Assembly (NCBI RefSeq): GCF_000025625.1
Contig: NC_013924.1
Span: forward strand, 62,001 to 126,000
From: Natrialba magadii ATCC 43099
GTDB lineage: Archaea > Halobacteriota > Halobacteria > Halobacteriales > Natrialbaceae
DNA length: 64,000 nt
Reading direction: 5' to 3'
Below are positions 7,090-58,715 of this stretch, piece by piece. Each line of letters opens with the position of its first letter. Positions within the stretch are counted from its first letter, which is position 1. Position numbers and translations under genes: made by a program. Below the pieces are notes generated by a model. It searched no databases and was not told where the DNA came from. It saw only the letters and a program-made list of their open reading frames with translations.

Positions 7090-7833
7090 CTGTCCCACCA
7101 CTATTTCGACTTCGTCCTCCGATCACGTTCTGAACGTTATCCTTCTGCATTCATCAAATACACCGAACGAGAATCATCACGAGCGATAGGAAGAGAACGG
7201 TTGTTCTCGACGCTCCTTTCGTATGTGTGGCTGTTGACTTGTATAGATAATGATGTTATAGTTGTGGGAAAGACGCTCAACTCTATCGCTCCCGCTGGCT
7301 CAATTCTCACCCACGAATTCTGGAAGTAGTCAACACGTTCGTGAGTGAGCGAGACCACTTTTCACTGGTAGTTCCGGTCGTCAACATCGGGTTAATCATT
7401 CAATCGCAGTCGCGATAGGAATGTCAAATAGCCACATCAATCGACGAAAAACGTCAGCTCGGAGTGATTGTGTTTCTCGGTCAATCTGTGAATGCATACA
7501 GCAACTCGATCGCTACCTTGTCGTCGACTGATGCGGTCTCAAGCATCGATCGTAAGCCATTCTTGATTGTGGAAATAATACTATACCGACTGTCCCTAAT
7601 ACTACTATCTTATTTTATTCATCTAGTTTTGAGCGGCTGTCCTACTTCCTGACTTCGCCGCTGTGGGTATCAACGAACACTGCCGCGTTGCCTCAATCAG
7701 ATGACGAGAGAAACTTTTGACTCCTCTAGGCCCTGGGGGACGTAGAATCCGGCCATCGAATTTCCGACGAGCTCACAGAAATGCAAGGAGAAAGCCCACG
7801 ACTTCAGTCGTGGGTAACTGACGACAGAGTCCC
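7090..7833. other. Long intergenic region, no convincing gene
   Basis: Between the TRAP permease and nikR there are 744 bp without a supportable gene. Only short unconvincing open frames are present, for example 73 codons on the minus strand at 7137-7358 and 62 codons on the plus strand at 7464-7652, neither with a recognisable domain. The only clear structure is an IS1341-type hairpin near 7795, listed separately. The region is richer in A+T than its neighbours and looks like decayed insertion material. Confidence 0.5.
7779..7818 (+). repeat. Solo IS1341/IS605-type terminal hairpin (left-end-like)
   Basis: The stretch AAGGAGAAAGCCCACGAC followed by TTCA and GTCGTGGG forms a perfect 8-bp stem with a 4-base loop at 7795-7814. 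The preceding AAGGAGAAAG is the same as at the outer end of the TnpB element at 57.7 kb (reverse strand), so this is a left-end remnant without its transposase. It lies about 20 bp beyond the nikR stop and could also act as a 3' structure for the nikR transcript. Confidence 0.65.
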
Positions 7834-8220
7834 TCAAGACCGAAGTAACAGGACTTTCACCTGCCCTACAGCGTCAAAATCACGGAGTCGATACACCAGT
7901 TTGCGAACTCGGGCCGCCTCACCACGACAAAAAATTGTTTCCAGACACCAGTCACCTTCATGGGTGTGACTTGTTGTCTTTATAATGTCTTGGAAGTCAT
8001 GTTGAACGTCGTGGAGCTCACGAATTACGCGTTCGTGTTGGTAATCGAATGCAAGTGCAGCAGTCACCTCGCCCGAGACAGTTTCGAGTTCGGTATGGGC
8101 CTCGATATACTCCTGCATTGCTTCGCGAACTGCTCGTGAACGAGAGTCAAATCCTTCTGCCTGCCACGTCTGATCGAATTCCGTGAGTAAGTCATCCGGA
8201 ATGTTGAAACTGGTACGCAT
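7834..8220 (-). CDS. nikR: NikR-type nickel-responsive ribbon-helix-helix regulator
   Basis: The 128-residue protein matches NikR in length and order: an N-terminal ribbon-helix-helix (MRTSFNIPDDLLTEFDQTW, SRSRAVREAMQEYI) and a C-terminal ACT-like metal domain. The high-affinity nickel ligands are recognisable as His74, His85, His87 and Cys92. The spacing H-x10-H-x-H matches the family, but Cys92 is one residue closer than in the E. coli protein. NikR binds Ni(II) and then represses nickel transport genes. It is divergent from a metal transporter, and a palindrome lies between them, supporting control of that gene. Confidence 0.88.
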   Translation of the reverse strand: MRTSFNIPDDLLTEFDQTWQAEGFDSRSRAVREAMQEYIEAHTELETVSGEVTAALAFDYQHERVIRELHDVQHDFQDIIKTTSHTHEGDWCLETIFCRGEAARVRKLVYRLRDFDAVGQVKVLLLRS

Positions 8221-8277
8221 CTGTCTACACTGGAACTAGTGGAGAGACCGGATGGGTGCTGTGGTTTTCCCGCTGAC

Positions 8278-8295
8278 TGGGTATTACGATACCCA
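8278..8295. promoter_or_regulatory. Perfect palindrome between nikR and the metal transporter (candidate NikR operator)
   Basis: TGGGTAT-N4-ATACCCA is a perfect 7-bp inverted repeat centred in the 123-bp divergent spacer, about 50 bp before the transporter ATG at 8344. Known NikR operators are dyads with GTAT/ATAC half-sites, although the E. coli one has a much longer spacer. The match of half-site core and location makes it the best operator candidate; binding is inferred. Confidence 0.6.
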
Positions 8296-8343
8296 CCAAT
8301 CTGTGCTAACAGCATTTTTCTGCCGTCTCTACCGAGATTCCGT

Positions 8344-9102
8344 ATGGATGTTGGTCTCGTTGTAGGCGTTATTGCAATAGGGTTTATCCATGGCGTGCTC
8401 CCCGATCACGGATGGCCGATTGCTGCGACCTACGGGTTGAATCGCTCGCGGACGTGGGTTTATGGGACAATAGCTGGACTCATTCTCGGGGTTGGACATC
8501 TGATTAGTAGCGTCGTACTGGTACTGGCGTACTTTTGGTTCAGTCGCTTTGCTGCATTCGCTGAGGGCCCATGGATGCGATATATTGCAGGTACTATGCT
8601 TATTCTACTGGGAATTCACGAATATCGGAATGGCGGACATGGGACGGCACATGGCCACACTCACAATGAGTCTCATCAACACCATAGCCACGCCCATACT
8701 CACACGCATGAACACGATGATAGTCATGCAGGAGAACCCTCCCAGCGTGGGATACTAACACGGATTCGGGAGCGACTGTTCAGCGGGGGGCATCGTCATT
8801 TGAGTGAAGAAGACGCTGAACGAGGACTGATGGCCCTTGGGACGACCGCGCTCCTCCTGGGATTTGCCCACGAAGAGCCGATTCAAATTCTGGCGATCTG
8901 TGCGGGCACAGCCTACTGTTTGGAGCTGATGCTTGTGTACTCGTTAGTCGTTATCATTGCAATCCTCATTCCAACGCTCCTCTTAATCGCGGGCTATGAA
9001 CGCCACCGCGAAACAGTTGAACGGTACACTCCGTACCTGCCGTTGCTGACAGCGACGGTACTGGTGGGTATGGGACTGGCATTCATTGGCGGGCTATTTT
9101 AG
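8344..9102 (+). CDS. Nickel/cobalt (UreH/RcnA/NicO-like) membrane transporter with His-rich loop
   Basis: I use the ATG at 8344 (MDVGLVVGVIAIGFIHG), 252 residues, rather than an upstream in-frame ATG at 8239 whose extra residues cover the putative operator. There are about six membrane segments. The first contains the family metal motif with His and Asp (GFIHGVLPDHGW) and a later one LLGFAHEEP. Between segments three and four lies a cytoplasmic loop of about 35 residues packed with His (HGHTHNES..HQHHSHAHTHTHEH), typical of nickel/cobalt transporters of the NicO/RcnA type. Direction (uptake or efflux) is not certain; regulation by the divergent NikR favours uptake. Confidence 0.82.
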   Translation: MDVGLVVGVIAIGFIHGVLPDHGWPIAATYGLNRSRTWVYGTIAGLILGVGHLISSVVLVLAYFWFSRFAAFAEGPWMRYIAGTMLILLGIHEYRNGGHGTAHGHTHNESHQHHSHAHTHTHEHDDSHAGEPSQRGILTRIRERLFSGGHRHLSEEDAERGLMALGTTALLLGFAHEEPIQILAICAGTAYCLELMLVYSLVVIIAILIPTLLLIAGYERHRETVERYTPYLPLLTATVLVGMGLAFIGGLF

Positions 9103-9223
9103 CAACCCCCTGTTCTGTCCAACTTGCAATCTCCAGTGATATTCTCTTCTATTCGTAACTGTGACTGAAGAGCGGAATTACAATAAAGTCTACATAGGTG
9201 TAATCTATTTGGCGTAGTCGATC

Positions 9224-10291
9224 ATGGTAGGAACCATGGTTATTGGTACCAAACTACAAGAGATGTATAGAGTCATGGTCACAGCTAGATACTACGAAGA
9301 ACGCCTTCAGGAGGAGTATCTGGAGGGAAAACAACCAGCCTTCGATATCTCTGCTGGGCCAATCCCTGGTGAGCTACACCTCGCAGCCGGTCACGAAGCA
9401 TCGGCCGCGGGAGTTTGTCAGCACTTGCGAGATGACGATACCGTTACGGCACCACACCGGCCTCATCATATCGCAATCGCCAAAGGTGTCGATCTAGATC
9501 GGATGACAGCGGAGATTTTTGGCCGCGAGACCGGACTGAGCAACGGAAAAGGCGGACACATGCACCTGTTTGATCCCGCTGTCAACTTCGCGTGTAGTGG
9601 TATCATTGCAGAGGGCTGTCCACCAGCCGTTGGGGCTGGACTCGCCGCGAAGAAGCGAAACGAAGACAGTGTTGCTGTCGCGTTTATCGGCGAAGGTGCC
9701 GTCAGTCAAGGCGCGTTCCTCGAGTCGCTGAATCTTGCCGCAGTCCAGAACTTGCCGGTCGTCTTCGTTATCGAGGACAACGATTGGGCGATCAGTATGC
9801 CCAAAGACCGCGTGACTGATGTCGAAGATGCATCTCAACGCGCAGGTGGCTTCGACCTGCCAGGGAAACGCGTGGATTCTGACGACGCAACGGCAGTGTA
9901 TGCTGCCGCCAAGGAGGCAGTTGGACGGGCCCGAGACGATAACGGACCGTCCCTACTCGAGTTACAGGTCCACCGTCGGATGGGGCATTTCATGGGCGAC
10001 CCTGAGAGCTACCGACCAGCGGAAGACTCGGAGGCCGCGAAAAACCGCGATTCAATCGAGCGGCTCGCCGCAGAGTTGCGTGCGGCAGGCGTTGAGGACG
10101 CTGAACTGGAAGAAATTCGTGATGAGGCTCACGAGCGCGTAGACAGCGCGATTGAATGGGCAAAAGAACAGCCACAACCCGATCCGGAAGACGCCTACGA
10201 GGATGTCTTTGCCGGGTCGAAATCTGGCGTAACGACGACCGAACCAGCGCACGAGCTTGCAGATACTACTCGAGCAGGAGGTGATGACTAA
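9224..10291 (+). CDS. 2-oxoacid dehydrogenase E1 component, alpha subunit
   Basis: A 355-residue thiamine-diphosphate E1 alpha subunit of pyruvate/acetoin/branched-chain dehydrogenase complexes. The cofactor motif is visible as FIGEGAVSQGAFLESLN followed by VVFVIEDNDWA (GDG replaced by GEG, as in many members). The active-site entrance has APHRPHH, and GKGGHMHLFD is a family signature. The start may instead be the ATG at 9236. Its stop overlaps the E1 beta start by one base. It decarboxylates a 2-oxoacid and, with E1 beta, transfers the acyl group to a lipoyl arm. Substrate is unassigned. Confidence 0.92.
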   Translation: MVGTMVIGTKLQEMYRVMVTARYYEERLQEEYLEGKQPAFDISAGPIPGELHLAAGHEASAAGVCQHLRDDDTVTAPHRPHHIAIAKGVDLDRMTAEIFGRETGLSNGKGGHMHLFDPAVNFACSGIIAEGCPPAVGAGLAAKKRNEDSVAVAFIGEGAVSQGAFLESLNLAAVQNLPVVFVIEDNDWAISMPKDRVTDVEDASQRAGGFDLPGKRVDSDDATAVYAAAKEAVGRARDDNGPSLLELQVHRRMGHFMGDPESYRPAEDSEAAKNRDSIERLAAELRAAGVEDAELEEIRDEAHERVDSAIEWAKEQPQPDPEDAYEDVFAGSKSGVTTTEPAHELADTTRAGGDD

Positions 10292-11319
10292 TGGCACAAC
10301 AAGAATCTACCCAGACTGTCGACCGCGAACTGACGATGAGCCGTGCGATGGTCGAAGCGATTGCTGACGAGATGCGAACGAACGAGGAGGTCTTCTACAT
10401 GGGTGAAGACGTCGCAGACTATGGCGGTATCTTCGACAGTACACAGGGGCTCCTCGATGAGTTTGGCCACGACCGAATCATGGATGTGCCGATTAGCGAG
10501 ACGGCCTATCTTGGCGCGGCTGTCGGAGCAGCACAGGCCGGGATGCGGCCGATAGCCGAGCTCATGTTCGTCGATTTCTTCGGCGTTGCGATGGACCAGA
10601 TCTACAATCAGATGGCGAAAAACACCTACATGAGTGGGGCAAACGTGACTGTCCCGATGGTGTTGACAGCCGCTGTTGGCGGGACGTACAACGACGCTGC
10701 CCAGCACTCCCAAACGCTGTATGGCACCTTCGCTCATCTTCCTGGGATGAAAGTCGTTGTTCCGTCGACAGCGTACGATGCAAAGGGGTTGATGCACAAC
10801 GCGATCCGCGATGATGATCCGGTCGTCTACATGTTCCACAAGCGGCTCATGGGAATCGGCTGGATGCCCGCACCTGATGGACCGAAAACGCCTGTCCCTG
10901 AAGAAGCGTACACGATCCCCTTCGGGAGTGCGGATGTCAAACGCGAGGGTGCGGATGTTACCGTCGTCACCCTTGGACTGCACGTTCACCGAGCGCTCGA
11001 GGCCGCTGAAACCCTCGCGGAGGACGACATTGACACCGAAGTTATCGACCTTCGAACGCTCGTTCCCGTAGATACCGACACAATTCTCGAGTCCGTCGAG
11101 AAAACCGGTCGGCTGGTCGTCGTCGACGAGGATTACCGCTCGTACGGTGTTACGAGCGAAATCATTGCCCGCGTCGCGGAGGCAGATCTAGCATCGCTTG
11201 AGGCGGTTGACCGTCTCGCGGTACCGGATGTCCCAATTCCATACGCGAGACCGCTGGAGAACGAGGTCATACCAGCTACGGACGACATTGAAGACACCGT
11301 CCGAGCCATCACCTCCTAA
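10291..11319 (+). CDS. 2-oxoacid dehydrogenase E1 component, beta subunit
   Basis: A 342-residue E1 beta subunit with the N-terminal pyrimidine-binding transketolase domain (FYMGEDVADYGGIFDSTQGL, family signature, and DVPISETAYLGAAVGAA) and the C-terminal transketolase domain (EVIDLRTLVPVDTDTI, VVVDEDYRSYGVTSE). It forms a heterotetramer with the preceding E1 alpha. Overlap by one base with that gene and a 2-bp gap to the lipoyl-domain gene indicate a single operon. The clear similarity is to acetoin/pyruvate dehydrogenase beta subunits. Confidence 0.94.
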   Translation: MAQQESTQTVDRELTMSRAMVEAIADEMRTNEEVFYMGEDVADYGGIFDSTQGLLDEFGHDRIMDVPISETAYLGAAVGAAQAGMRPIAELMFVDFFGVAMDQIYNQMAKNTYMSGANVTVPMVLTAAVGGTYNDAAQHSQTLYGTFAHLPGMKVVVPSTAYDAKGLMHNAIRDDDPVVYMFHKRLMGIGWMPAPDGPKTPVPEEAYTIPFGSADVKREGADVTVVTLGLHVHRALEAAETLAEDDIDTEVIDLRTLVPVDTDTILESVEKTGRLVVVDEDYRSYGVTSEIIARVAEADLASLEAVDRLAVPDVPIPYARPLENEVIPATDDIEDTVRAITS

Positions 11320-11321
11320 CC

Positions 11322-11582
11322 ATGGCTGGGAATGACCACCTCGAGATCAACACGGCCGATGTCTGGCCCGAGGACACAGACGAGAACGAAGGTGTCGTCA
11401 GTAACTGGTTCACGAGTGAGGGCAGTCAGGTCGAGGAGGGTGACACCCTCTGTGAAATCCAGGTTGAAAAGGTCAGCGTCGACGTGCCAGCACCTGCGGC
11501 GGGAACCGTCCACGAAATCGTCTGTGCTGAGGATGATGAATTCGAACGCGGTGATATCTTAGCGGTGCTGGAGGCTGCCTGA
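11322..11582 (+). CDS. Free-standing lipoyl-domain protein (E2 lipoyl arm)
   Basis: The 86-residue protein is a single biotinyl/lipoyl domain. The acceptor lysine is Lys50 in the turn QVEKVSVD, a lipoylation-type (EKV/DKV) rather than biotin-type (MKM) sequence. Normally this domain is the N-terminus of E2; here it is its own gene directly before the E2 catalytic core. It would carry the lipoyl cofactor between E1, E2 and E3. An ATG overlapping a CCATGG at 11322 gives the start, 2 bp after the E1 beta stop. Confidence 0.9.
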   Translation: MAGNDHLEINTADVWPEDTDENEGVVSNWFTSEGSQVEEGDTLCEIQVEKVSVDVPAPAAGTVHEIVCAEDDEFERGDILAVLEAA

Positions 11583-11613
11583 GCCCCTCCAGTTTCACTC
11601 GGAAACGTATACC

Positions 11614-12357
11614 ATGACATCCCCCACCGAAAACGGCGACGCTAGCCAGAACAGCGACACCTCATCGGGCGACGAACGCACCGTTCTCGAGGAGCGCAAA
11701 CTCACAGGGATGCGCCGAACGATCGCAAATCGCCTCCAGGAGAGTTCGCAAGAGGCCGCTCACGTGACGGCAAGTCGCGAGGTTGACGCCGAGGAACTCG
11801 TGAGAGCAGCCGAGGTGGCGAGCGACAAATACGACGTTGACGTCTCCGTGGTTGATATTGTCCTCTGTGCGCTCTCGGAAACGCTTGCGGACCACCCTGC
11901 GTTCAACGCAACACTCGAGGACGGCCTTCACCGCCTCTACGAGACACAGAACGTTGGTATCGCAGTCGATATCGACGCTGGATTGGTGACGCCAGTCCTC
12001 ACCGCACTCGAGTCGAAATCGCTCGATCAAGTTGCGATCGAACGTCGTGAGTTGACAGAATCTGTGCAGACAGGCTCCTATTCTATGTCTGATCTTCGTG
12101 GCGGGACGTTCACGATAACGAATCTTGGCGTTCTGGGTATCGACTCGTTCACGCCGATCATCAACCCGCCAGAAGTAGCGATCCTTGGTGTCAATCGCAT
12201 CCGAGACCGTGCACGCCCGGGCGACGAAGGTGTTGACTTTCGCAAACAGATTCAGTTTGATCTGAGCTTCGACCATCGAGTCGTCGATGGCGCCGATGCA
12301 GCTCGGTTCCTCGAGACGTTGGCTACTCATATTGAGAACGCTGAAGCACTGCTGTGA
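11614..12357 (+). CDS. 2-oxoacid dehydrogenase E2 acyltransferase catalytic domain (no lipoyl domain)
   Basis: The 247-residue product is only the catalytic acyltransferase core. The active-site motif SFDHRVVDGADAARF places the catalytic His at about residue 221, and GTFTITNLGVLG is the usual core motif. The first 25 residues are an acidic, Ser/Asn-rich tail with no lipoyl domain and no recognisable peripheral-subunit-binding domain; the lipoyl domain is the previous gene. No dihydrolipoamide dehydrogenase (E3) follows, so E3 must be shared from elsewhere. Haloarchaea carry several such clusters whose substrates are largely unproven. Confidence 0.9.
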   Translation: MTSPTENGDASQNSDTSSGDERTVLEERKLTGMRRTIANRLQESSQEAAHVTASREVDAEELVRAAEVASDKYDVDVSVVDIVLCALSETLADHPAFNATLEDGLHRLYETQNVGIAVDIDAGLVTPVLTALESKSLDQVAIERRELTESVQTGSYSMSDLRGGTFTITNLGVLGIDSFTPIINPPEVAILGVNRIRDRARPGDEGVDFRKQIQFDLSFDHRVVDGADAARFLETLATHIENAEALL

Positions 12358-12409: not shown

Positions 12410-12446
12410 GGGATCCCTCCGCCTTCAGGCGGAGGTGAATGTCAAC
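12410..12446 (+). repeat. Solo IS1341/IS605-type right-end hairpin
   Basis: CCTCCGCC-TTCA-GGCGGAGG (12416-12435) is a perfect 8-bp stem with a TTCA loop, followed by TGAATGTCAA. The TnpB element at 56 kb ends, on its own strand, with a hairpin having the same TTCA loop and then TAGATGTCAA. This copy therefore looks like the 3' end of a lost TnpB element. It lies 58 bp after the E2 stop and could also serve as a transcript-end structure. Confidence 0.6.
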
Positions 12447-48978: not shown

Positions 48979-49587
48979 TCAAGCCACAGTCAGTCCAGCG
49001 ACAATAACGTATCCACCAACAATCACCAGCACGGTGGGAACGAGCCATCGGTCAAGTCGATCAGAGATCCCATCGATAGCGACGCGATACACGAGTAGGA
49101 GCGCAGTGAGAAATACGATTCCAGCGGCGATCAAATATACGATGACGATGAGTTGCAACTCTCCTGGTCCAAGGTCGGCAAAAAACGGAACGAACACTGC
49201 GATGTTTTCACCGCTAAGTCCGATTCCCGCAACGGTAACCACACCAATACGCCCGACTGAGTTCGGCACAGCCGGTAGTTCTTCAATGGTTGTTTCTGGA
49301 GGACGACTGATGAGACCCCACAGACCGATGGTGAGGGGAACGACTCCCAGCAGAAAGGTCCACTCGTACAGGAGTTCAGCCGCGACAATCGCCCCGACAA
49401 CCGCAGCACTGAGACCGATACAAAAACTCACATAGTGTCCAACAAGCACTTCCCAGAGCTGATAATCGTTATCCGCACAAAACGCACTGATGACGAGTAA
49501 CGTATCAATATGGGTTACAATGAACAACCACAGGGCCACAAACAAGACTGTCTCCACAGAACACAATGCTAGTCGCACTGAAACCAT
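48979..49587 (-). CDS. CadD-like cadmium resistance transporter, paralogue 1
   Basis: From the ATG at 49587 (MVSVRLALCSVETVLFVAL) there are 202 residues with about six membrane segments. The family motifs are THIDTLLVISAFCADNDY, GHYVSFCIGLSAAVVG and IGLSGENIAVFVPFFA, with conserved Asp/His/Asn in the membrane. It resembles CadD/LysE-superfamily exporters of divalent cations. A paralogue with over half its residues identical is at 55.5 kb. The upstream in-frame ATG at 49659 overlaps the broken SHOCT gene. Confidence 0.8.
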   Translation of the reverse strand: MVSVRLALCSVETVLFVALWLFIVTHIDTLLVISAFCADNDYQLWEVLVGHYVSFCIGLSAAVVGAIVAAELLYEWTFLLGVVPLTIGLWGLISRPPETTIEELPAVPNSVGRIGVVTVAGIGLSGENIAVFVPFFADLGPGELQLIVIVYLIAAGIVFLTALLLVYRVAIDGISDRLDRWLVPTVLVIVGGYVIVAGLTVA

Positions 49588-49655
49588 ATATTGGTTTCCT
49601 CTCCATCCTACCGTTGTGTCTGCTGTACTGAAAAGCCGTGACCAACGCAGAACGT

Positions 49656-55110: not shown

Positions 55111-55513
55111 GTTATTCAAGGAGCGGAACTACGCAGCCAATACGACAGCTGTGGTTCCTGTCCACCTCAATGTTTTCAGCACTCATTATGTCCAACTCTC
55201 GGACTCGGTACCTTCACCTCCGAATTTCGGCCGTCTTTTCTGACAGAATTTCCATATCTCGCTATACCACTGCAAGATACAAGGCGCGAACGTGGAACGG
55301 ACTGAGGAGCGATCAACGCGGAAGATCGAACGGTCAATACAGGTCAAGCAGGTAACGGACCAGCAATCGATTCCTACGATAGCTATCAAGAGATGCCTGC
55401 TGAATATAGAGCATTAGTGCAGCACGACGACTTGGTTTTCAGATTGTAGTTGTGACCCTATAGTCGGTAGAAACCGAGAACAGAAGCCGATCGGTTCGGT
55501 AAAGACGTGGAGT
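55111..55513. other. Intergenic region with a repeat copy
   Basis: About 400 bp without a supportable gene. It contains a repeat-A core (55398-55426) and CTGCAAGATACAAGGCGCG (about 55268), the latter nearly repeated at 59094. Confidence 0.5.
55396..55428 (-). repeat. Dispersed repeat A, copy 1
   Basis: On the minus strand GTGCTGCACTAATGCTCTATATTCAGCAG. It matches the consensus GTGCnACATTCGCGC..TGTATTCAGCAG shared by six sites at 55-63 kb. Confidence 0.7.
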
Positions 55514-56110
55514 TCAGGCGATAACCCATCCGGACACTACGACGAGCCCGCCGACGAGTACCAACACGGAGGGGACGAGCCACCGATCCAGCCAGTCAGG
55601 AATGCCGTCGGTAGTGAGGCGAGATACGGTTGCGAGCGCGGCGAGAAACACGACCCCGGCACCGATCAGGTAAACAGTGATGATAAGTATCAGTTCGGCT
55701 GGCGAGAGGGTAGCGAAAAATGGGATGAAGAGAGCGATGTTTTCGCCGCTGAGACCCAGTCCTGCGGCGGTCACGACACCGATACGTCCGAGAGAGTTTG
55801 GCACGAAGGGCACCTCTTCGACCGTCGTTTCTGGGCGCTGGCGGAGTAGTCCCCATAGTCCCAAGCTGAGGGGAACGAAACCAAGCATGAACGTCCACTC
55901 CTGGAGTAGCTCGGCAGCAAGAATCGTCCCGATGACCGCCGCGCCCAATCCGCCACAAAAGCCGACGTAATGCCCAACAAGCACTTCCCAAAGGCGGTAA
56001 TCGTTGTCCGCACAAAAGGCGCCGATGACGAGTAGCGTGTCAATATGGGTTAGGACGAACAACCACACGCCCACAAGCAGAACAGCTTCCACAGATCCTA
56101 TATATGTCAT
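55514..56110 (-). CDS. CadD-like cadmium resistance transporter, paralogue 2
   Basis: The 198-residue paralogue of the 49-kb gene: THIDTLLVIGAFCADNDY, GHYVGFCGGLGAAVIG, LGLSGENIALFIPFFA. Six membrane segments. The starting ATG at 56110 is directly preceded by the region of the TnpB element's right end (56.2 kb). Confidence 0.82.
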   Translation of the reverse strand: MTYIGSVEAVLLVGVWLFVLTHIDTLLVIGAFCADNDYRLWEVLVGHYVGFCGGLGAAVIGTILAAELLQEWTFMLGFVPLSLGLWGLLRQRPETTVEEVPFVPNSLGRIGVVTAAGLGLSGENIALFIPFFATLSPAELILIITVYLIGAGVVFLAALATVSRLTTDGIPDWLDRWLVPSVLVLVGGLVVVSGWVIA

Positions 56111-56201
56111 GTCCGATTTCTATAATTGTTTCTCTACGAAAGCCCTGATCGTTGGAGGATGTCGTGACCGGCACTCATTTTCTGACTCGTACCGTATTGG
56201 C

Positions 56202-57716
56202 TTGACATCTACCCACGACTGAAGTCGTGGGATTCCTTTCGTGGGAGTCTCAGTCGTCCTGAGATTCCCCGACAGCGACATTCCCACCCACGGTGGTACT
56301 CTGGTCTGTGTACGCCTCGTTAGCCGTTGTCTCCACTAGGGAGGGCGGGTTGTGATGTTCCCGCCAGTTGTGATTGTTCCACTTGAGATACACGGGCCGT
56401 GCCATCGACCCGACTTCGGTGTTCTGCCGTCTCAGGAACGATTCCGATGCGACGAGGTCAGCGTGCCCCTCGAATCCGCACGGACACGCCAGCGAATCCT
56501 CGTGACGAATAGTCCCTTTGTGCTCGCCACATTCGGGACACATCTGAGTTGTCCACGCTTCAGATACCTCGTTGACCGTGATACCGTACTCCTCACACAC
56601 GTCTTCGAGGCGGTTGATAAACCGGCGGTACGCCCAGAAGTTGTGCGTCTTTTCGTTCACACACGGCGACCAGTGCGTCGAAAGCACGCCCTTGATGTCC
56701 CCGACGTACAGCGTCGAAACGCCCTCGTCGTACAGACGTTCCGTGAGCTCGCGGACGAGGGTGTCTTGGGCGTGGTTCCGCCGGTTTGTGCGCTTGCGAT
56801 ACAAGCGGTCGATGCGCTTGCTCGACTCACGCTGGTTTTCGAGGAGTGACTGGTAGTGTGCGATACGTTCCGTGGTTTTCCGGAACTGCTCGAACAGGTT
56901 ACGTCCTTCGAACAGGAATTGAAAGCCGGTCGTTGTTGTGCAGGCGACGAGGTTGTTCACGCCCACGTCCAAGGCGGCTTCGTGGGAAGCCAGTGGTGAG
57001 TCCAGTCGAGAATCAGGCACGGTGACTGGTTGGAAAGCCCTGAACGTATCTGCGGTTTCGTCGTACACAATTTCAAGCCGGTTCTGCTCGCCGCTCCATT
57101 TCGGCTCACCAGCAACTTCAACGCGGAGGCGTTGGTTCCGATTCAACCCAAGTTCGTCTTTGAGTTCGGAGCCGATCGGGACTTCAAGTCGGGAACGTTC
57201 GCCGTACTCTATGGTGTACTGGTCGTTGCGAACGTACGTGCGGAGTACCCGCCCATCGTCTTTGCTGCCCCAGTATCCGGGTGGAGACGGCTTCTCGTTG
57301 AGTTTCCCGGCGTGGTACTTTTCGTTGAGCGAGAGGAATGACCGCCACGCTTCGGAGTTTTTGCGGATGATCTGCTGGGCGACGGAACTGCTGAGGACAC
57401 CCTTGTACTTACCTTCGAGACTACCGGTGTCGGCGTCCCAGATGCTTTCATCGTCTTCGAGGAAGTTTTGGCGGCGAGTGTAGTTTGTCTCGTTCCAGAG
57501 ACTCGCAGAAGCGTCCAACCAACGAACGAACACCTCGCGCTCTTTCGCAGAGCGAGGGCGAACGTTGAACCGGTTGGCTCGCTTCATATCACCGTCTACG
57601 AAGTGTTTGTTTGTAAAGATATGCGTTAGCGTGGGAGACTCAGGCCCGCCATTGAGTGTTGTTGATGACGTGGGATGTCGGATTCATCCCACGACTAAAC
57701 TCGTGGGCTTTCTCCT
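56202..57716 (-). mobile_element. IS1341-type (IS200/IS605 family) TnpB element with hairpin ends
   Basis: A minus-strand tnpB is framed by hairpins. At its 3' side CCCACGAC-TTCA-GTCGTGGG (56212-56231, minus strand) is followed by TAGATGTCAA, the probable right end. At its 5' side AAGGAGAAAGCCCACGA-GTTTAG-TCGTGGG (57688-57716) is the left end. No tnpA is present, so it is TnpB-only. Related solo ends are at 7.8, 12.4, 22.4-22.5 and 48.85 kb. Confidence 0.8.
56250..57587 (-). CDS. tnpB: RNA-guided endonuclease TnpB (IS1341 type)
   Basis: The 445-residue TnpB has an N-terminal helical region ([14 protein letters not shown]), a RuvC first Asp in [16 protein letters not shown], a second acidic position in [17 protein letters not shown] (Asp where many relatives have Glu), the zinc finger CPECGEHKG...[12 protein letters not shown], and the last RuvC Asp in [11 protein letters not shown]. 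TnpB proteins are guide-RNA-directed DNA nucleases. It ends 40 bp before the right-end hairpin. The gene is intact and probably functional. Confidence 0.92.
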
Positions 57717-57791
57717 TGATTTTCTGTAAGTCGGGAGAATCGCTCAGCACGGGGAAAGATTGGCGGTACGGGGAAGGATTGGGGGATAAGC

Positions 57792-58715
57792 TCAACTGAA
57801 AGCGTCCTCAAGGGACGGGACTACCTGCTTTTTCCGGGACATGACGCCTGGCAAGAACGCTTTCTGATCGGTAAACGTCGTGTCGAGGGCGTCCGCGACA
57901 GTGTCTGTGTAATCACCGGCAACGAGGACAGTCGAGTCCTCGTCAAGGAGGTCAGTGACAAGTAATAGGAGGGTGGTGAACTCCCGCTCATCAACGATAT
58001 CGTCCATCGCGGCGAGAACAACGGCTTGCTGCTCCAGCACTGCTTCCGGGGTGACAGTTTCGACTTGACCGATCCCGACGTGATGCGATCCAAATTCGAA
58101 CTCCTTGAAATCGCCAAGAACCATCTCACGCGGGCTTTTATTACCGAGTTTGCTTTTTTGTTGGAGGAGATCTTTTCCGTACGTCTCGATTTCCACACCG
58201 GCTGTCTCCGCTAGGCGCTCGGCCACAACTCGATCCGTGTCGGTGGTCGTAGGCGATCGGAGGACGACAGTGTCACTCAAGAGACCACTTAGCAACAGCC
58301 CAGCGGTCTCACTGTCGATCGGTTCGTCTGCCTCGTCGTACAGGTGCGTGAGAATGGTCGCGGTTGAGCCAACTGGTTCGTTCCGGAAGAAGATGGGGTT
58401 GCTGGTTGTCACGTCACCGATACGATGGTGATCCACGATTTCGACGATCTCTGCCTCCCGAGCGCCAGGCACGGTCTGGCTGTACTCGTTGTGATCAACG
58501 AGAATGAGCCGTTCCGTCGCGGCATCCTCCAGAAGGGGCGGGGTCTGCACACTCCAGAAATTTAAAACAAACTGGGTTTCAGGGTTCACCTCACCAGCTC
58601 GTGCCGGGACAGCATCCACTTCCTGCGATTGTTTCAACCACGCATACGCGAGTGCAGAGCAGACCGCATCCGTATCTGGCTGTTGGTGGCCGATAACGTA
58701 GAGCGGCTGTGACAT
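57792..58715 (-). CDS. ppaC: Manganese-dependent inorganic pyrophosphatase (DHH family)
   Basis: The 307-residue enzyme has GHQQPDTDAVCSALAYAW, EIVDHHRIGDV and GSTATILTHL, the DHH motifs of family II pyrophosphatase, and a C-terminal DHHA2 domain with a substrate-binding SRKKQ near the end (about residues 292-296). It hydrolyses PPi with Mn in the cytoplasm. Length is the family norm. Confidence 0.93.
   Translation of the reverse strand: MSQPLYVIGHQQPDTDAVCSALAYAWLKQSQEVDAVPARAGEVNPETQFVLNFWSVQTPPLLEDAATERLILVDHNEYSQTVPGAREAEIVEIVDHHRIGDVTTSNPIFFRNEPVGSTATILTHLYDEADEPIDSETAGLLLSGLLSDTVVLRSPTTTDTDRVVAERLAETAGVEIETYGKDLLQQKSKLGNKSPREMVLGDFKEFEFGSHHVGIGQVETVTPEAVLEQQAVVLAAMDDIVDEREFTTLLLLVTDLLDEDSTVLVAGDYTDTVADALDTTFTDQKAFLPGVMSRKKQVVPSLEDAFS

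What the first reader, a model, noticed from the sequence alone, without database searches (positions are those of the whole stretch)
56202..57716. Complete TnpB-only element with matching solo ends elsewhere in the window
Seen: intact tnpB with hairpins sharing TTCA loop and GATGTCAA end; solo ends at 7.8 and 12.4 kb. Known: TnpB right-end transcripts act as guide RNAs and the guide lies just outside the end. Inference: guide here begins with GCCAATACGG (minus strand, below 56202), and orphan ends elsewhere could supply alternative guides in trans.
Basis: partly seen in the sequence, partly recalled or inferred. Interest (0 to 1): 0.55.

Follow-up and report, generated by a model that had tools for sequence, protein, structure and literature searches.

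The report
Haloarchaeal TnpB element, relocated catalytic glutamate
This is an ordinary small mobile element of salt-loving archaea carrying one gene for an RNA-guided DNA-cutting enzyme; its ends and guide can be read from the sequence, its active-site glutamate sits where the related eukaryotic Fanzor enzymes keep theirs, and the stray copies of its ends nearby do not look like extra guides.

Summary
Real and largely ordinary. 56202-57725 (minus strand) is a complete tnpB-only (IS1341-type) IS200/IS605 element in a Natrialbaceae-family genome. Sister copies fix its borders: TTAC (57729-57726), then 1524 bp ending in TCAA at 56202. A relative (G091) keeps TTAC followed by a perfect guide match; four junction-spanning alignments of three sister elements show the same empty-site geometry, two more lack TTAC. 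The 3' end is a structured RNA with compensatory changes. The canonical RuvC-II glutamate is absent (Gly296), but an alternative one (E343, E-x6-CxxC) is present; in 99 haloarchaeal TnpBs the two exclude each other (92 versus 7), though one partial copy outside that set has both. This is the published 'Ealt' arrangement of Fanzors and some TnpBs, so RuvC is probably active. The solo ends are real but lack the RNA scaffold: 7.8 kb is a left-end type, 12.4 kb a right-end type, best read as transposase-free remnants. Guides in trans from them are unlikely. Minor new point: most of the clade has a CxC second zinc knuckle and escapes the published Ealt search pattern.

The parts
56202..57725 (-). 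complete tnpB-only IS200/IS605 (IS1341-type) element, 1524 bp
56250..57587 (-). tnpB, 445 aa; D207, G296 in place of canonical Glu, E343 alternative Glu, D377; zinc ribbon C350 C353 C368 C370
   Evidence: dN/dS 0.15-0.21 against seven close relatives
57726..57729 (-). TTAC, inferred transposon-adjacent motif / left cleavage site
   Evidence: TTAC at the same place in 18 of 19 close copies with a left end found
57688..57707 (-). left-end hairpin CCCACGAGTTTAGTCGTGGG
56202..56287 (-). predicted 3' domain of the omega RNA (stems plus right-end hairpin)
   Evidence: pair counts in 28 sequences; fold z -2.96 for 56202-56361; covariance-model hit of 84.5 bits is by construction, as it is a training sequence
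56212..56231 (-). right-end hairpin CCCACGACTTCAGTCGTGGG
56182..56201 (-). predicted guide, first 20 nt: GCCAATACGGTACGAGTCAG
   Evidence: lies directly after TCAA; the same bases are preceded by TTAC in G091
7773..7814 (+). orphan left-end type: TCAC, 10 nt, GGAGAAAG, hairpin; no omega RNA scaffold
   Evidence: sequence
12410..12445 (+). orphan right-end type hairpin ending ATGTCAA; no scaffold upstream
   Evidence: sequence, model hit 31.3 bits mostly from the last ~40 nt

Best explanation
A tnpB-only IS200/IS605 element. Shown by comparison: borders TTAC|...|TCAA, a structured 3' RNA end, a protein under purifying selection, and a RuvC domain whose second acidic residue stands at E343 instead of the usual place (G296). 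Inferred: the 3' end of the tnpB transcript is processed into an omega RNA whose guide is the flanking DNA (GCCAATACGG...); TnpB with that RNA cuts TTAC-GCCAATACGG... in DNA that lacks the element, which favours keeping or restoring the element by recombination. Movement would need a Y1 TnpA in trans; the genome has one tnpA, next to a TnpB of another type. The 7.8 and 12.4 kb ends are remnants (PATE-like), not extra guides.
For: Family; fold close to Cas12f, ISDra2 TnpB and mimivirus Fanzor2 (model pLDDT 73.5; Z 20.4, 17.8, 16.9). Borders: TTAC in 18 of 19 and TCAA in 18 of 18 close copies where the end was found, of 20 rows; junctions TTAC|guide with nothing in between in four alignments from three elements (L098 against G112 and G111, L094 against G113, L093 against G113). 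RuvC swap: 92 rows with E343 and no E296, 7 rows with E296 and P or A at 343, none with both or neither among 99 (four wrong-frame rows dropped); E343 in 79 of 79 loci of a separate scan whose search peptides did not include it. Selection. RNA: 222 of 224 hairpin cells are standard pairs, with two-sided changes at pairs 3 to 8. Orphan ends without scaffold.
Against: No expression or cleavage data. The G091 site is not a clean empty site: homology to the window ends at the junction, the other flank is unrelated, and homology between G091 and G122 ends at the same place, so that break may have another cause. Two of six junction-spanning alignments lack TTAC (L096 against G112, L048 against G111). 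One partial copy (L237) has both glutamates. The distance between E343 and the two aspartates was not measured (no coordinates were available).
Confidence: 0.82

Rival explanations
1. The TnpB is nuclease-dead and has been kept as an RNA-guided DNA-binding regulator (TldR-like; the definition is recalled, the name seen in the listing).
For: Canonical RuvC-II Glu is Gly296 in this protein and in 78 of 79 scanned relatives.
Against: All three acidic residues of the alternative arrangement are kept: D207 in 78 of 79, E343 in 79 of 79, D377 in 78 of 79 with one not readable; the elements still have intact transposon ends and lie at varied places.
Confidence: 0.1
2. Orphan ends at 7.8 and 12.4 kb are transcribed and supply extra guides in trans to this TnpB.
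For: 12.4 kb keeps the right-end hairpin and ATGTCAA (31.3 bits).
Against: No conserved stems upstream of the hairpin in either; 7.8 kb is a left-end type and carries no TCAA end.
Confidence: 0.05
3. 7.8 kb (left-end type) and 12.4 kb (right-end type, same strand) are the two ends of one 4.66-kb composite element carrying a nikR-like gene, a transporter and a 2-oxoacid dehydrogenase operon.
For: Right order and orientation; the two gene blocks match separate places in relatives such as G022 and G027.
Against: The two hairpins differ (CCCACGAC against CCTCCGCC stems); no match joining the two outer flanks was listed, but the joined flanks were not searched as such.
Confidence: 0.05

Closest known systems
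ISDra2 TnpB (IS200/IS605), PDB 8h1j, 8exa, 8bf8
   Same: fold over nearly the whole protein; right-end RNA with the guide outside the end (recalled for ISDra2)
   Different: TAM is TTAC here (ISDra2 TTGAT, recalled); no tnpA in the element; RuvC-II Glu relocated
Ealt TnpBs with D-phi-G, the clade described beside Fanzors (PMC10711439, passages read)
   Same: Glu six residues before the zinc ribbon, no Glu at the canonical place
   Different: second zinc knuckle is CxC in 82 of 99 rows, so only 7 of 99 match the published pattern
Haloarchaeal IS1341-type elements and their omega RNAs / sotRNAs (PMC12558985 sections, PMC3119063 passages read)
   Same: tnpB-only elements, near-terminal palindromes, 3' overlapping RNAs
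   Different: nothing essential; borders, TAM and guide are worked out here for this copy
PATEs and 52-bp terminal-only elements of Haloquadratum (PMC3119063, passages read)
   Same: short transposase-free pieces with IS605-type palindromes, some from repeat-mediated core deletion
   Different: the 7.8 and 12.4 kb pieces each keep only one type of end, while C1:2647962 and C3:169342 look like fused ends

Membership tests
TnpB / IS200-IS605 accessory nuclease | OrfB_IS605 and zinc-ribbon TNB domains | tested here: met
   (92.5 and 57.4 bits, above cut-offs)
TnpB / IS200-IS605 accessory nuclease | canonical D-E-D RuvC triad (typical, but not shared by Ealt TnpBs) | tested here: not met
   G296 in place of Glu
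TnpB / IS200-IS605 accessory nuclease | RNA-guided cleavage next to a TAM | not testable with these tools
   needs expression; TTAC inferred by comparison only
Ealt TnpB (D-phi-G clade) | E-x6-CxxC and no canonical Glu | tested here: met
Ealt TnpB (D-phi-G clade) | full published search pattern, with a second CxxC | tested here: not met
   window protein has CxC (C368, C370)
Fanzor / pro-Fanzor | DPG at RuvC-I | tested here: not met
   DVG at 207-209; definition from PMC10711439
TldR (nuclease-dead TnpB; definition recalled) | loss of the RuvC catalytic residues | tested here: inconclusive
   canonical Glu lost, alternative Glu and both Asp kept; activity not testable
IS200/IS605 ends | subterminal hairpins, no target duplication, insertion 3' of a short motif | tested here: met
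   no bases between TTAC and guide in four junction alignments of sister elements
PATE (solo ends) | palindrome-bearing, transposase-free, mobile or relic | tested here: inconclusive
   sequence type fits; mobility and empty sites of the two window ends not shown

The most novel reading that the evidence does not exclude
A large haloarchaeal clade of IS200/IS605 TnpBs works with a Fanzor-type relocated glutamate and a shortened CxC zinc ribbon, cutting at TTAC; and in genomes with many remnants some deleted copies that still keep RNA-scaffold sequence (such as C1:2280395 or the piece at C3:157405) feed additional guides to resident TnpBs in trans.
Probability: 0.15. Interest if true: 0.6.

Novelty: new member of a known kind. 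Interest (0 to 1): 0.33.

Why it matters
It gives a ready test case: a haloarchaeal TnpB with an inferred TAM, a defined guide, a relative carrying a perfect target, and a relocated catalytic Glu in an IS200/IS605 setting. That would show whether the relocated active site cuts like the usual one. It also shows that stray ends near a TnpB element should not be taken as guides unless the RNA scaffold is present.

Tried and rejected
Rfam search of 55900-57900 gave only a sub-threshold match (E 0.32). Single-sequence folding failed (pLDDT 35.7); the 31-row alignment gave 73.5. E312 as the replacement glutamate was rejected: it is missing in 5 of 31 clade rows, and its near-invariance is biased because the scan used NEKTHNFW as a search peptide. 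A guide target in viral contigs: 0 exact matches to an 18-base pattern. A TTAC-preceded target elsewhere in the own genome: none; only the element's own flank. Whether Ealt arose once is open: the tree of 25 rows needs one change, but the branch has support 76/55 only; the L017-L019 type is about 25% identical and also Ealt. The composite 4.66-kb reading was looked at and not followed further. The ends of the one tnpA-bearing element were looked at and not resolved. Altae-Tran et al. 2023 (rearranged TnpB active sites) is recalled only; it is not held. I make no claim that haloarchaeal Ealt TnpBs are absent from print.

Full report
Observation. The window carries an intact tnpB of 445 aa at 56250-57587, minus strand, matching Pfam OrfB_IS605 and Cas12f1-like_TNB and NCBIfam guided_TnpB above its cut-off. 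Hairpins lie on both sides. A hairpin pattern taken from the ends occurs 11 times in the window where shuffles give 1.06 on average, and 15 times in the genome against 0 for the reversed pattern. The genome is 4.44 Mb in 4 contigs; the window lies on a 255-kb contig.

Borders. In 20 close copies examined, a left end was found in 19, with TTAC exactly 10 nt before GGAGAA in 18 and TGAC in one; a right end was found in 18, always TCAA. A wider set of 33 rows, with some genomes present twice, gave TTAC in 20 of 23 left ends found and TCAA in 30 of 30 right ends found. The element is thus 56202-57725, 1524 bp. Thirteen sister elements measured the same way are 1516 to 1528 bp.

Empty sites. I joined the flanks of eight sister elements and searched eight genomes of one genus. 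Seven pairs were examined: four keep TTAC directly followed by the guide side (L098 against G112 and G111, L094 against G113, L093 against G113), two span the junction but do not have TTAC (L096 against G112, L048 against G111), and one (L095 against G117) did not span the junction. For two elements (L094, L095) the joined flanks also read as one continuous protein frame, one of them resembling CutA (read by eye; the name is recalled).

Guide. In 125 genomes of the family, TTAC plus 18 guide bases with up to 3 mismatches is found in 2: the own element flank (TCAA in place of TTAC) and G091 with no mismatch. G091 is 96% identical to the window over 864 nt up to exactly 56201, and the first 39 guide-side bases match perfectly (counted by eye). 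Caution: beyond the junction G091 and the window are unrelated, and the homology between G091 and G122 also stops there, so the G091 site is a matching target but not proof of the insertion event.

Protein. The canonical RuvC-II glutamate is glycine 296. A glutamate at 343 stands six residues before the first zinc-ribbon CxxC. In 99 haloarchaeal TnpBs (103 minus four wrong-frame picks), 92 have E343 and lack E296, 7 have E296 and Pro or Ala at 343, none has both or neither. In 79 loci of a separate scan E343 is present in 79 and G296 in 78; one partial copy, L237, has both glutamates. This equals the Ealt arrangement described for Fanzors and for a D-phi-G clade of TnpBs (PMC10711439, passages read). 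In the predicted model (pLDDT 73.5) residue 296 lies at the end of one strand and 343 directly follows the next; distances were not measured. Only 7 of 99 rows match the published Ealt pattern as I rebuilt it, because 82 have CxC in the second knuckle. The gene is under purifying selection: dN/dS 0.15-0.21 against seven close relatives, 0.35 against the in-genome paralogue L016.

RNA. The last 86 nt of the element and the same part of 27 relatives form a conserved hairpin: 222 of 224 cells are standard pairs, with two-sided changes at pairs 3 to 8. An upstream stem (CTCTCG with CGAGAG, CTCACG with CGTGAG in L055, CTCCGT with ACGGAG in the sister group) was read by eye; the window has one mismatch in it. 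Known haloarchaeal omega RNAs have such right-end hairpins (PMC12558985, section read).

Orphan ends. A covariance model from 28 right ends finds 32 places in the genome at E up to 10. Of the 20 given as loci, 10 adjoin a tnpB gene, one (C1:2280395) adjoins a 67-aa tnpB tail, one has only a weak 28-aa match and 8 have none. In the window the 12.4 kb end scores 31.3 bits, aligned well only over its last ~40 nt, and 7.8 kb scores 17.8. Neither folds with the upstream stems. They fit transposase-free remnants as described for Haloquadratum (PMC3119063, passages read). At C3:157405-157669 there is a 265-bp piece with both ends, and C1:2647962 and C3:169342 look like left and right ends fused on one hairpin.

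Movement. One Y1 tnpA was found in the genome, next to a tnpB of another, canonical type. At least 15 tnpB genes are present: 12 and three more.

Verdict. An ordinary member of a known kind with a good, testable set of features; the trans-guide proposal is not supported for the two window ends.

Noticed in passing
L147 (G113), guide side of the L093 empty site: An insertion of roughly 80 nt with inverted ends (TACGGTTT...AAACCGTA) sits 16 nt after TTAC in the target, about where TnpB is expected to cut (recalled). One case only.
   Followed up: partly
L012, 45-aa ORF starting at 1838, and sister elements: A 45-aa ORF divergent from tnpB lies near the left end in 9 of 77 more distant (under 74% identity) elements and in 0 of 33 close ones.
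   Followed up: partly
L105 (G000:C1:2280395-2280468): tnpB reduced to its last 67 aa, 88% identical to the intact L017 type, with a complete right end and TCAA: a candidate stand-alone guide RNA.
   Followed up: partly
window 7834-12357: A nikR-like gene, a transporter and a 2-oxoacid dehydrogenase operon lie between a left-end type and a right-end type hairpin on the same strand.
   Followed up: partly
L044 left flank (query 19-103): An 85-bp sequence with inverted ends recurs dozens of times in G110, G113 and G115: probably a miniature mobile repeat.
   Followed up: no
window 48994-49604 and 55462-56110: Two stretches that match the same neighbour-genome gene; the second is weakly CadD-like, below the curated cut-off.
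   Followed up: no
L012 (right end of the in-genome paralogue L016): The right-end hairpin of the paralogue carries an insert of about 47 nt with its own hairpins.
   Followed up: no
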